This document shows positions 28,319 through 31,229 of a stretch of 40,170 nucleotides of DNA, one piece after another. Origin of the DNA: Solimonas soli DSM 21787 (GTDB lineage: Bacteria > Pseudomonadota > Gammaproteobacteria > Nevskiales > Nevskiaceae); assembly GCF_000474945.1 (NCBI RefSeq), contig NZ_AXDW01000024.1:1-40170 (forward strand). The letters are read 5' to 3'. A program made the translations under genes and the position numbers. The notes under the pieces were generated by a model. The model was not told where the DNA came from and did no database searches. It saw only the letters and a program-made list of their open reading frames with translations. Each line of letters starts with the position of its first letter. The first letter of the stretch is position 1.

Positions 28319-28699
28319 ATGCCATCTTTGCAGCGCCAACGCGGTCTCGGCCTGTTCGGCCTGGTATTCGTGCTCGCGGTGATCGCGTTCCTGGCGATCG
28401 TCGGCGTGAAGACCGTGCCGATGTACCTGAACCAGATGAAGGTCGCCTCGGCGATGAGCAAGATAGCGGCCGACCCGGAGAACGCCAACGCCGATCCGCT
28501 GACGATCCGCAAGGATCTGCAGAAGTACTGGGACATCGACGACGTCGAGTACCTGTCGGTCAACGACGTCAAGATCAAGCGCACCGATCGCGGCCGTTTC
28601 ATCAGCTACGACTACGAGGCGCGCGAGCGGCTGTTCTACAACATCTACATCGTCATCCACTTCGCGGACGACGTGCCGCTCGCCAACGTGCAGTCTTGA
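28319..28699 (+). CDS. DUF4845-family membrane protein
   Basis: 126 residues. RQRGLGLFGLVFVLAVIAFLAIVGVKTVPMYLNQMKV is a prepilin-like start: short basic lead, then one hydrophobic helix. A soluble domain with YDYEARERLFYNIYIVIHF follows. The family commonly sits between lepB and rnc in gamma- and betaproteobacteria. Its function is unproven. A role in export or envelope biology is a guess from position. A strong AAGGGAGGGGG precedes the ATG. The stop overlaps the rnc start as TTGA. Confidence 0.85.
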   Translation: MPSLQRQRGLGLFGLVFVLAVIAFLAIVGVKTVPMYLNQMKVASAMSKIAADPENANADPLTIRKDLQKYWDIDDVEYLSVNDVKIKRTDRGRFISYDYEARERLFYNIYIVIHFADDVPLANVQS

Positions 28700-29379
28700 C
28701 CGCAGTCGTCCAGAATCTGCAACGCCGGCTCGGCTACCGATTCCAGGATCCGGCGCTGCTGACGCAGGCGCTGACGCATCGCAGCGCCGGCTACGCCAAC
28801 AACGAGCGGCTCGAATTCCTCGGCGACGCGCTGGTCAATTTCGTCATCGCCGAGGCCCTGTACCGGGTCCGCCGCGGCGATGAGGAAGGCGCCCTGTCGC
28901 GCCTGCGCGCGAGCCTCGTGCGCGAGGAGACGCTGGCCGAGCTGGCGCGCGGCCTCGAACTCAGCGATGCCTTGACGCTCGGCGAGAGCGAGCTGAAATC
29001 CGGCGGCTACCGCCGCGCCTCGATCCTCGCCGACGCCTTCGAGGCCGTGCTCGGCGCCGTCTATCTCGACGGCGGGTTCGAGGCGGCGCGGCAGGTCTGC
29101 GAGCGCCTGTTCGCCGCGCTGCTCGGCGACCTGCCGGATGCCGATACGCTCAAGGACGCCAAGACGCGGCTGCAGGAATGGCTGCAGGCGCGCGCCCGTC
29201 CGCTGCCGCTCTACGAGGTGATCGAGGAAAGCGGACCGCCGCACCGCCGGCGTTTCCACGTGCGGGCCAGCCTCACCGACGCCGAACTGGCCGCCGACGC
29301 GCACGGCTCGAGCCGCCGCGCCGCCGAGCAGGACGCCGCGCGGCACTTACTGCAAAGCCTACAATCTGCCCATGCATAG
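28696..29379 (+). CDS. rnc: Ribonuclease III
   Basis: 227 residues from TTG 28696, the only start codon in frame that gives the family N-terminus, and it overlaps the DUF4845 stop. It cuts double-stranded RNA in rRNA and mRNA processing. The catalytic domain (about 1-150) has NERLEFLGDALVNF and the second acidic cluster in ILADAFEAVLGAVYLDGG. The double-stranded-RNA-binding domain (about 155-225) ends HGSSRRAAEQDAARHLLQSL. Its TAG stop lies inside ATGCATAG, which also starts the next reading frame. The hairpin-rich repeats just downstream could be substrates, which is speculation. Confidence 0.95.
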   Translation: MTAVVQNLQRRLGYRFQDPALLTQALTHRSAGYANNERLEFLGDALVNFVIAEALYRVRRGDEEGALSRLRASLVREETLAELARGLELSDALTLGESELKSGGYRRASILADAFEAVLGAVYLDGGFEAARQVCERLFAALLGDLPDADTLKDAKTRLQEWLQARARPLPLYEVIEESGPPHRRRFHVRASLTDAELAADAHGSSRRAAEQDAARHLLQSLQSAHA

Positions 29380-29503
29380 CGGCATCGTTTCCATCGTCGG
29401 TCGGCCCGCCGCGCAGGCGCTGAGCGCCTGCGGGCCATTGGTAATCGGGGCTTTCCTCTACGTTGGGCCGATGCGGGCGGCGCCGAGGATTGATCATGCA
29501 TAG
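29372..29503 (+). CDS. Mini-Era peptide ORF, copy 1
   Basis: A 43-codon ORF from the ancestral era start position. It begins MHSGIVSIVGRP exactly like Era, then AAQALSACG replaces the NVGKS P-loop, and the tail is PLVIGAFLYVGPMRAAPRIDHA. The ATG overlaps the rnc stop in ATGCATAG, and its own TAG (29501-29503) overlaps the next ATG the same way. Ribosomes coupled from rnc would meet this start first. No GTPase activity is possible without the P-loop. It may be a peptide, a translation relay or a by-product of the repeat. Confidence 0.45.
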   Translation: MHSGIVSIVGRPAAQALSACGPLVIGAFLYVGPMRAAPRIDHA

Positions 29504-29619
29504 CGGCATCGTTTCCATCGTCGGTCGGCCCAACGCGCAGGAGCAAAGCAACTGCGGGCCATTGGTAATCGGGGCTTTCCTCTACGTTGGGCCGATGCGG
29601 GCGGCGCCGAGGATTGATC
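29372..29619 (+). repeat. Two tandem 124-bp units that duplicate the era start
   Basis: Units are 29372-29495 and 29496-29619, and the intact era start at 29620 is a partial third copy (40 bp identical to unit 2). Each unit has the first 36 bp of era, a 20-nt variable stretch, a 65-nt or so constant tail with CTACGTTGGGCCGA (29458-29471, 29582-29595), and ends GATTGATC. Units 1 and 2 differ only at 29408, 29409, 29418, 29421, 29422, 29426 and 29427 (second unit at +124), and unit 2 has A each time. Unit 1 contains a 10-bp perfect hairpin (29413-29433) that is interrupted in unit 2. Confidence 0.95.
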
Positions 29620-29627
29620 ATGCATAG
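29496..29627 (+). CDS. Mini-Era peptide ORF, copy 2
   Basis: A 43-codon ORF that is the same as copy 1 except for four residues: the sequence after MHSGIVSIVGRP is NAQEQSNCG rather than AAQALSACG. It keeps the Asn of the Era P-loop but not GKS. The stop TAG (29625-29627) overlaps the true era ATG at 29620 within ATGCATAG, so termination here would deliver ribosomes to era. Frame, length and both overlaps are preserved between the copies. Confidence 0.45.
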   Translation: MHSGIVSIVGRPNAQEQSNCGPLVIGAFLYVGPMRAAPRIDHA

Positions 29628-29662
29628 CGGCATCGTTTCCATCGTCGGTCGGCCCAACGTAG
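29582..29662 (+). promoter_or_regulatory. Possible hairpin enclosing the era start codon
   Basis: CTACGTTGGGCCGA (29582-29595) is the exact reverse complement of 29649-29662, which is era codons 10-15 over the P-loop. In mRNA the 14-bp stem would enclose the era ATG at 29620, with GATGC/GCATC available as an inner stem. Upstream unit 1 can form a shorter 11-bp version with unit 2. A control of era translation is inferred. Confidence 0.45.
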
Positions 29663-30504
29663 GGAAATCCTCCCTGCTCAATGCGCTCGTCGGGCGCAAG
29701 GTCAGCATCGTCTCGCACAAGCCGCAAACCACGCGGCATCGCATCCAGGGCGTCGTCAATCGCGAGGGCGGGCAGATCGTCTTCGTCGACACGCCGGGCC
29801 TGCACCGCCGCGAGACGCGCAAGCTGAATCGCGTGATGAACGAGCAGGCCGCGGCCAGCCTCTACGACATCGATCTGATCGTTTTCGTCGTCGAGGCGAA
29901 CCGCTGGACCGAGGAAGATGCGGCGGTGCTGCAGCGGCTCGAAGGGCTCGGCACGCCGGTCGGCCTCGTCGTCAACAAGATCGACCGCATCGCCGACAAG
30001 GCAGCGCTGCTGCCGGAGTTGCAGAAGCTCACGGCGATGCGCGACTACGCCTTCGTGGTGCCCTTGTCCGCGCTCAAGCGCAACAACGTCGACGCCCTGC
30101 TCGGCGAGCTGTTCCAGCGCCTGCCGGAAGGGCCGCCGCTGTATCCCGAGGACCAGATCGTCGGCTACGACGACGCCTTCCTGGTGGCCGAGCTGGTGCG
30201 CGAGAAGCTCACGCGCAACCTGCACCAGGAGCTGCCGTACTCGCTCACGGTCGGCGTCGAAAGCTACGAGCGCGAAGGCCGGCTCGATCGCGTCGAGGCG
30301 GTGATCTGGGTCGAGCGCGAAGGCCAGAAGAAGATCGTCATCGGCGAAGACGGCGAGACGCTCAAGCAGGTCGGCACCAGCGCGCGCCGCGAGCTCGAAC
30401 GCCTGCTCGGCCGCAAGGTCTTCCTCAAGCTCTGGTGCCGCGTGCGCGAGAACTGGAGCGACGATCTGAAGGCGCTGAAACAGTTCGGCCTGACCGGCGA
30501 ATAG
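29620..30504 (+). CDS. era: GTPase Era (30S ribosome assembly)
   Basis: 294 residues. Era binds GTP and the 3' end of 16S rRNA to assist 30S maturation. The P-loop is GRPNVGKS (residues 10-17), then TTRHRIQG (G2), DTPG (G3) and NKID (G4). The C-terminal KH domain includes KKIVIGEDGETLKQVG. ATG 29620 is the third copy of the repeated start, and the only one leading into the P-loop. An in-frame ATG at 29587 lies in repeat unit 2 and is unlikely. The gene is intact despite the upstream duplication. Confidence 0.95.
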   Translation: MHSGIVSIVGRPNVGKSSLLNALVGRKVSIVSHKPQTTRHRIQGVVNREGGQIVFVDTPGLHRRETRKLNRVMNEQAAASLYDIDLIVFVVEANRWTEEDAAVLQRLEGLGTPVGLVVNKIDRIADKAALLPELQKLTAMRDYAFVVPLSALKRNNVDALLGELFQRLPEGPPLYPEDQIVGYDDAFLVAELVREKLTRNLHQELPYSLTVGVESYEREGRLDRVEAVIWVEREGQKKIVIGEDGETLKQVGTSARRELERLLGRKVFLKLWCRVRENWSDDLKALKQFGLTGE

Positions 30505-30521
30505 CGGACCGGCCTTCGGCG

Positions 30522-31229
30522 ATGCGTGCCCGCGTCACGCTCGAACCTGCGTATCTCCTGAACCGTCGTCCGTACAGCGACAGCAGCCTGCTGCTCGAGG
30601 CGATCACCCGCGGGCACGGACGCATCGGCCTGGTCGCGCGCGGCGCGCGCGGCGCCAAGTCGAAGCTGCGCGGCCTGCTGCAGCCGTTCGCGCCCCTGCT
30701 GCTGAGCTGGAACGCGAGCGGCGAGCTGGCGACGCTGAGCGCCGCCGAAGCGGCGGGACCGCCGCTGCTGCTGGCCGGCGAGCGGGTGTTCTTCGGCTGG
30801 TATCTCAACGAGCTTCTCCTGCGCCTGCTGCAACGCCAGGACGCGCATGCGGCCCTGTTCGACGCCTATGCGCTCGCCGTACAGCAGTTGCCGGGCGCGG
30901 CGACGCAGGCCGAGGACGCCCTGCGCATGTTCGAGAAGACGCTGCTCGCCGAGATCGGCTACGGCCTGCTGCTGCCGGACGATCTCGATGCGGCGCAGCG
31001 CTACCACTACGACGCCGACGCCGGACCGCAGCCGGCGGCGTCCGATGCGCCGCAGGCCTACGCCGGCGCCAGCCTGATCGCCCTGCGCGACGAGCGGCTG
31101 GCGACGGCCGAGGCGCGCCGCGACGCACGCCGCCTGCTGCGCGCCGCGCTCGCCGCGCAGCTCGGCAGCAAGCCCCTGCAGACGCCGCTGCTGATGCGCG
31201 AGATGCGCGAGGCGCAGGACGCGGGCTGA
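30522..31229 (+). CDS. recO: DNA repair protein RecO
   Basis: 235 residues, a RecFOR-pathway mediator that helps load RecA on SSB-coated DNA. The N-terminal OB fold (about 1-80) has YLLNRRPYSDSSLLLEAITR and the ARGARGAKSKLRG basic segment. The helical C-terminal domain (LNELLLRLLQRQDAH, RMFEKTLLAEIGYG) follows. The four-cysteine zinc site of some family members is absent, as is usual in gammaproteobacteria. It is 17 bp after era, the standard era-recO-pdxJ order. Confidence 0.93.
   Translation: MRARVTLEPAYLLNRRPYSDSSLLLEAITRGHGRIGLVARGARGAKSKLRGLLQPFAPLLLSWNASGELATLSAAEAAGPPLLLAGERVFFGWYLNELLLRLLQRQDAHAALFDAYALAVQQLPGAATQAEDALRMFEKTLLAEIGYGLLLPDDLDAAQRYHYDADAGPQPAASDAPQAYAGASLIALRDERLATAEARRDARRLLRAALAAQLGSKPLQTPLLMREMREAQDAG

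What the first reader, a model, noticed from the sequence alone, without database searches (positions are those of the whole stretch)
29372..29627. Two tandem mini-Era reading frames inserted between rnc and era, each keeping the ATGCATAG stop/start overlap
Two exact-period 124-bp units each restart era with its first 12 codons, then run into a non-Era tail of 31 codons and stop. The rnc stop, both mini-ORF stops and all three starts use the same overlapping ATGCATAG. The copies keep frame and length despite seven substitutions. A random tandem duplication would not need to preserve the coupling, so this may be a translation relay, a peptide gene, or a replicating element that uses the era start.
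Basis: partly seen in the sequence, partly recalled or inferred. Interest (0 to 1): 0.78.

Follow-up and report, generated by a model that had tools for sequence, protein, structure and literature searches.

The report
Translation relay between rnc and era
In a group of soil and water bacteria, short copies of the start of an essential ribosome-assembly gene sit in front of that gene so that ribosomes could pass from the previous gene through one or two throw-away mini-genes into it, and the same odd layout seems to have appeared several times.

Summary
Observation confirmed: two 124-bp units (29372-29619), each opening with era's first 12 codons, each an open 43-codon frame, joined by three ATGCATAG stop/start overlaps. 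An assembly artefact is unlikely: 6 of 85 genomes of the order carry such units, in four lineages on a quick tree, with plain-junction relatives. All ten mini-ORFs found at this junction (seven full units, three shorter ones) are 1 mod 3 in length and open to the next overlap. The peptide tails show no protein constraint, no second genomic copy was found, and no reverse transcriptase. Best reading: a local direct-plus-inverted duplication (template-switch type) kept in frame as a translational relay from rnc to era, perhaps a natural hairpin-gated coupling element. The relay is likely; a regulatory role of the stem is unproven, and one folding test went against simple start masking. A neutral relic remains a serious rival. 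In the Solimonas clade a TACAAT just before the first mini-ORF is kept against codon usage. New variant of a known kind.

The parts
28696..29379 (+). rnc (RNase III), TTG start chosen by me, stop TAG inside the first ATGCATAG
   Evidence: Pfam Ribonuclease_3 and dsrm; open frame checked
29360..29365 (+). TACAAT, possible -10 hexamer, its first base 12 nt before the first mini-ORF ATG, inside rnc codons CTA CAA
   Evidence: at the same place in 5 of 5 clade genomes; its two codons are the only ones of 145 same-residue rnc codons with third base A in all five; no sigma-70 type site found by the scan
29372..29495 (+). unit 1, 124 bp
29372..29503 (+). mini-ORF 1, 43 codons, starts in the rnc stop overlap and stops in the next overlap
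29372..29407 (+). direct copy of era codons 1-12 (36 of 36)
29413..29431 (+). hairpin GCAGGCGC-TGA-GCGCCTGC, intact in unit 1
   Evidence: pair counts
29419..29457 (-). possible eroded continuation of the inverted era copy (era codons about 15-29)
   Evidence: anchored extension p=0.003 for unit 1; unanchored test only p=0.088
29458..29471 (-). inverted P-loop copy of unit 1; can pair with the era-like start of unit 2 (11 nt by eye) or with era
   Evidence: model hit 29448-29550, 80.6 bits
29496..29619 (+). unit 2, 124 bp, 7 substitutions (all to A) against unit 1
29496..29627 (+). mini-ORF 2, 43 codons
29496..29535 (+). direct copy of era nt 1-40 (40 of 40)
29537..29555 (+). hairpin site of unit 2, disrupted by 5 of the 7 substitutions
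29582..29595 (-). inverted P-loop copy of unit 2, exact 14-nt complement of era 29649-29662
29609..29619 (+). GAGGATTGATC, Shine-Dalgarno-like stretch before era (its copy at 29485-29495)
   Evidence: sequence; no test made
29649..29662 (+). era P-loop codons complementary to the inverted copy
29620..30504 (+). era
   Evidence: Pfam MMR_HSR1 and KH_2

Best explanation
Each full unit is a remodelled local duplication of the start of era: a direct copy of codons 1-12, an inverted copy of codons from the P-loop onward, and a short stretch with a Shine-Dalgarno-like sequence before the real start. The message reads rnc, mini-ORF 1, mini-ORF 2, era, with each hand-over at an ATGCATAG stop/start overlap. 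Ribosomes finishing rnc reinitiate on the mini-ORF, translate it and reinitiate on the next start, so the mini-ORFs carry ribosomes and their peptides are by-products. The inverted copy lies inside the mini-ORF and can pair with era's P-loop codons, forming a long stem that encloses the era start; a ribosome on the mini-ORF would open it, so the stem would favour relayed over independent initiation. Shown: anatomy, presence in four lineages, frame preservation, pairing potential, lack of peptide constraint. Inferred: template-switch origin, actual translation, reinitiation, and any regulatory role of the stem.
For: Units in 6 of 85 order genomes: the era-start copy scores 34-36 of 36 there and at most 23 in the rest of a 125-locus set, and at most 24 in the 149 loci (22 of these were also in the first set, two are order genomes). 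Four lineages on a quick tree, fewest changes 5 (81 of 85 genomes placed). 10 of 10 mini-ORFs open and 1 mod 3; with shuffled tails each is open with probability 0.37-0.71. Pairing of the inverted copy with era: 92.1% of cells, 5 of 19 pairs with changes on both sides, 0 of 500 shuffles as high, slid controls at most 45.6% (6 sequences only, and the structure was drawn from them). MFE z -1.7 to -5.3 in the 6 unit genomes against -0.44 to +1.53 in the 7 others folded. Peptide tails pN about pS. The inverted copy continues beyond the core in G000 unit 1 (p=0.003) and G008 (p=0.007), uncorrected. rnc-era coupling by overlapping stop/start and reinitiation is described for many gammaproteobacteria (PMC10582724, section 33 read); a designed coupling element with a hairpin around the second RBS and overlapping stop-start works in this way (PMC11602170, passages read).
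Against: No expression data. Holding the inverted strand open lowers the computed cost of opening the era start in only 2 of 6 genomes and raises it in 4, against simple masking. Only 6 of 85 order genomes have it, and two close relatives (G006, G007) keep a coupled mini-ORF without the era copy or this stem, so the stem is dispensable. G001's first mini-ORF (91 bp) resembles the era start only in part, and no inverted copy was tested there. Template switching can itself make and repair stems (PMC8794818, abstract and opening text read), so covariation does not prove selection. The hairpin inside the unit has weak support (2 of 9 pairs with double changes, reached by 144 of 500 shuffles) and is broken in the window's own copy 2. 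G043's stem core has one mismatch and its longest unbroken pairing is only 10. The inverted-copy extension is not significant in G043 and G031 and borderline in G001 and G005; unanchored it is significant in 0 of 7 units, while the opposite-orientation control reaches p=0.043 in G031. Some junctions without units fold as strongly (G002, G023, G061).
Confidence: 0.45

Rival explanations
1. Neutral mutational relic: template switching at era's start keeps creating and homogenising direct and inverted copies; frame is kept only because insertions that break coupling to the essential era gene are purged. The stem does nothing.
For: Template switching is reported to create and maintain stems (PMC8794818, abstract); patchy distribution and varied copy number; each of 7 units' era copies matches its own host's era best, as expected of recent formation or conversion; peptides unconstrained.
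Against: The pairing core is exact or nearly so while the neighbouring inverted copy, where recognisable, has eroded; the layout recurs in four lineages; none of the 149 loci has it.
Confidence: 0.35
2. RNase III target: the long stem across the era start is cut by RNase III, the product of the gene just upstream, giving feedback on era unless ribosomes keep the stem open.
For: E. [quoted passage not shown] PMC8708148 passages); the predicted stems have roughly 18-23 pairs by my count; in the window rnc follows DUF4845 with no room for a leader.
Against: No cleavage evidence and no test of RNase III preference; two close relatives lack the stem; substrate length rule recalled, not looked up.
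Confidence: 0.12
3. A conserved small peptide gene.
For: Open 43-codon frames sharing era's first 12 residues; codons 2-12 differ less (pN 0.04-0.09) than the tails, as a copy of era would.
Against: Tails: pN 0.33-0.38 against pS 0.26-0.55 with even codon positions over three pairs, while era shows pN 0.08-0.11 and pS 0.44-0.51; no Pfam match.
Confidence: 0.03
4. A mobile or retro-element using the era start, or diversity-generating mutagenesis.
For: All 7 differences between the units are A in copy 2; one weak 30-bp match elsewhere in the genome.
Against: No second place in the model search of 85 order genomes; no reverse transcriptase domain in the own genome at E up to 0.001, with 3 of 14 control genomes positive.
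Confidence: 0.03
5. Assembly artefact.
For: A tandem repeat in a 34-contig assembly; no reads could be checked.
Against: The two copies differ, and assemblies of other species hold their own units.
Confidence: 0.02

Closest known systems
rnc-era translational coupling of gammaproteobacteria
   Same: rnc stop overlaps the era start; era translation by reinitiation (PMC10582724, section 33)
   Different: one or two extra open frames are interposed, each with its own overlap, and the full units hold an inverted copy of era codons
Synthetic translational coupling element (synTCE)
   Same: hairpin around the second start with overlapping stop-start, opened by the upstream ribosome (PMC11602170, passages)
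   Different: natural, with a loop of about 60-75 nt by my count and one strand of the stem in era's coding sequence; my opening-energy test did not reproduce gating in 4 of 6 genomes
RNase III autoregulatory stem of the rnc operon leader
   Same: long stem in the same operon message (PMC10582724, section 33)
   Different: lies between rnc and era, not in a 5'-UTR; cleavage untested
Template-switch mutations and tandem inversion duplications
   Same: direct and inverted copies of one short stretch side by side (PMC8794818 abstract; PMC4689423 passages; details of bacterial inversion duplications recalled)
   Different: very short, kept in frame, recurrent at one site, with remodelled ends

Membership tests
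Coupling by termination-reinitiation | stop and start codons overlap or lie close | tested here: met
   mini-ORF ends overlap the next start in 10 of 10 as [AGT]TGC[AG]TAG; their own starts overlap the rnc stop as ATGCATAG, ATGCATAA, ATGCGTAG or ATGAGTAG
Coupling by termination-reinitiation | upstream frame open to the overlap | tested here: met
   10 of 10 mini-ORFs
Coupling by termination-reinitiation | downstream translation depends on upstream translation | not testable with these tools
   needs reporters or profiling
Hairpin-gated coupling element | stable stem encloses the second start, one strand inside the upstream frame | tested here: met
   predicted only; G043 z -1.7 is weak
Hairpin-gated coupling element | removing the upstream strand frees the start | tested here: inconclusive
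   opening cost falls in 2 of 6 and rises in 4 of 6
Template-switch or inversion duplication | inverted copy of nearby sequence | tested here: met
   unbroken pairing of 14-18 nt (G-U allowed) in 5 of 6 genomes; G043 has one mismatch
Template-switch or inversion duplication | inverted copy continues collinearly beyond the core | tested here: inconclusive
   anchored p 0.003, 0.007, 0.040, 0.050, 0.066, 0.27, 0.49 over 7 units, uncorrected; unanchored 0 of 7
Mobile repeat (REP, MITE and the like) | dispersed copies | tested here: not met
   own genome: one weak 30-bp match only; order: no other place above 39 bits against 93-123 for units (strict filters)
Diversity-generating retroelement | reverse transcriptase in the genome | tested here: not met
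   PF00078 no match in the own genome, 3 of 14 controls positive
Small peptide gene | purifying selection on the residues | tested here: not met
   tails of three units and the G006/G007 pair
Known Rfam RNA | match at the gathering score | tested here: not met
   28600-30600: three matches at E up to 1, none at its gathering score
RNase III target | cleavage by RNase III | not testable with these tools
   needs an enzyme assay

The most novel reading that the evidence does not exclude
A self-templated, repeatedly evolving regulatory relay: the start of an essential gene copies itself, directly and inverted, into its own upstream junction, and the copies become a ribosome-gated coupling switch that tunes Era to RNase III. 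In the Solimonas clade the preserved TACAAT just before the first mini-ORF would add a second, leaderless mini-ORF-era message.
Probability: 0.2. Interest if true: 0.75.

Novelty: new variant of a known kind. Interest (0 to 1): 0.5.

Why it matters
If true, it shows how a regulatory RNA stem with its own leader ORF can arise in few mutational steps from the gene it controls, repeatedly and at one site. It would be a natural counterpart to designed hairpin-gated coupling elements, in an operon where RNase III and Era dosage is known to be controlled, and a simple reporter test can separate function from relic.

Tried and rejected
Rejected: dispersed element, diversity-generating retroelement, known Rfam family, peptide gene. 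An origin of the last 25-40 nt of the unit from the rnc 3' end was tested: p=0.005 in G008, not significant in the other 5 of 6 genomes; left open. Rightward extension of the inverted copy: p=0.037 in G043, not significant in the other 6 of 7 units. The promoter scan of 29200-29800 found no sigma-70 site, so the TACAAT reading rests on conservation alone; rare codons pausing ribosomes near the rnc stop would explain it as well. The only genome other than G000 that passed E 1e-7 in the class-wide model search, G295 at 42.7 bits, looked by eye like a plain era start. That search scored 10 candidates per genome and is weak as a negative. The copy-2 segment has no second match within 3 mismatches in the window. 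Literature, listings only, in the held open-access library: Solimonas with translational coupling, 0 papers; minicistron with coupling and reinitiation, 0; rnc-era with translationally coupled, 1, the Era review; rnc-era with intergenic and repeat, 1, on Serratia symbiotica, not read; coupling with RNase III, era and overlapping, 2, by title unrelated, not read. None of these describes the layout as far as I saw; subscription papers are mostly not held.

Full report
What is there. The window holds rnc (28696-29379) and era (29620-30504), identified by Pfam, separated by two 124-bp units. Each unit starts with an exact copy of era codons 1-12, runs on for 31 codons and stops in the next ATGCATAG. 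The two units differ at 7 sites inside 20 nt, and copy 2 has A at all 7. The first two of these A's extend the era match of copy 2 to 40 nt and give the inverted copy of unit 1 an 11-nt partner by eye; the model scores this upstream pairing at 80.6 bits. The other five break the hairpin. I have no explanation for the all-A pattern.

Relatives. The genus is represented by 11 held genomes, the family by 58 and the order by 85. Of 58 family genomes, 35 parsed as the plain 8-nt overlap, 6 have full units (G000, G001, G005, G008, G031, G043), 2 have a coupled mini-ORF without an era copy (G006, G007), 9 have an ordinary gap, and 6 (G019, G023, G051, G055, G056, G057) were not resolved by my parser, though their start-copy scores show no unit. 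In a set of 125 loci (85 order genomes plus 40 of the 80 named loci, some of them the same records; the other 40 named loci failed my first motif) the era-start copy scores 34-36 of 36 in the six genomes and three named duplicates and at most 23 elsewhere. In the 149 loci, of 151 tried, the best is 24; these include the 40 loci missed before, 22 repeated ones, two from order genomes, and 87 others from the class. A quick tree of 81 genomes (G023, G035, G037, G061 dropped for lack of a recognised rnc) needs 5 changes of state and puts units in four lineages; G031 sits on a long branch at an open fork, and one gain with many losses is not excluded.

Frame. The ten lengths 124, 124, 91, 124, 124, 121, 121, 133, 82, 82 are all 1 mod 3 and all frames are open to the next overlap. 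The 91-bp one is an extra mini-ORF in G001 that resembles the era start only in part. With shuffled tails openness is 0.37-0.71, so for one unit in each of four lineages the chance of frame and openness together is about 0.002 by my arithmetic. This is the best evidence that passage of ribosomes matters. The peptide itself seems not to: in three pairs of Solimonas-clade units the tails have pN 0.33-0.38 and pS 0.26-0.55, while era has 0.08-0.11 and 0.44-0.51.

Inverted copy. Each of the seven full units carries an antisense stretch of the P-loop codons: unbroken pairing of 14-18 nt, G-U allowed, in 5 of 6 genomes, with one mismatch in G043. Counted on six sequences, 92.1% of cells pair, 5 of 19 pairs have changes on both sides, and no shuffle of 500 reaches this. 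G000 differs from its clade relatives G001 and G008 on both strands at three pairs, though at one of them G001 does not pair. The 114-126 nt around the start fold with z from -1.7 to -5.3 in the unit genomes and -0.44 to +1.53 in the 7 others folded, but over 85 genomes G002, G023 and G061 fold as strongly without a unit. The hairpin inside the unit is less well supported. Beyond the core, the antisense continues into era codons 15-29 in G000 unit 1 and G008 (p 0.003 and 0.007, anchored), weakly in G000 unit 2, G001 and G005, not in G031 and G043; the unanchored test is significant in none of 7. I read this as an old direct-plus-inverted duplication whose flanks have eroded while the core was kept or re-made; that is inference.

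Does the stem gate era? The cost of opening the era start is higher in the six (11.3-16.6 kcal/mol) than in 79 others (mean 9.9, sd 3.6, range 4.5-20.1; p=0.009, relatedness ignored), but holding the antisense strand open lowers it only in G001 and G005 and raises it in the other four. So the stem encloses the start, but a simple on/off mask is not what the folding model predicts. A ribosome on the mini-ORF and RNase III on the stem are not modelled.

TACAAT. In the five genomes of the Solimonas clade TACAAT begins 12 nt before the first mini-ORF start; of the other order genomes two, G018 and G029, have it within 45 nt, farther from the start. It sits in rnc codons Leu-Gln, and among 145 rnc codons with the same residue in all five these two are the only ones with third base A in all; CTA and TTA make up 3 of 191 Leu codons in six window genes. 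This looks like a constraint other than protein: a -10 element with a start site near the ATG, or rare codons near the stop. The scan found no sigma-70 site.

Known background. rnc-era coupling by overlapping codons and RNase III autoregulation through a 5'-UTR stem are described (PMC10582724, section 33 and passages); era is reported toxic in excess (PMC8708148, passages). A designed element with hairpin and overlapping stop-start shows that the proposed gating is physically possible (PMC11602170, passages). Template switching is reported to make and maintain stems (PMC8794818, abstract and opening text), which is why a neutral relic stays at 0.35.

Verdict. A real, in-frame relay layout at the rnc-era junction, present in four lineages of one family; the function of the stem is open. 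Interest 0.5.

Noticed in passing
29408-29427 against 29532-29551: All seven differences between the two units fall in 20 nt and all are A in copy 2; two of them restore pairing with the inverted copy of unit 1, the other five break the hairpin.
   Followed up: partly
29360-29365 and the same place in G001, G006, G007, G008: TACAAT kept 12 nt before the first mini-ORF start against codon usage; possible internal promoter or rare-codon pause.
   Followed up: partly
L057 and L058, 1453-1566 (G007, G006): Here the Shine-Dalgarno-like GGAGCAGG before era is predicted to pair with era's own CCTGCTC codons, a different stem around the same start; shuffles fold as well.
   Followed up: no
L087 (G029), gap before era: The 204-nt rnc-era gap of this genome (named Hydrocarboniphaga sp.) holds a long inverted repeat of the GTAGGTTGGGGT type and a TACAAT 34 nt before era.
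   Followed up: no
L112 (G014), gap before era: A 162-nt rnc-era gap with hairpin-like repeats, while its close relative G025 has 54 nt.
   Followed up: no
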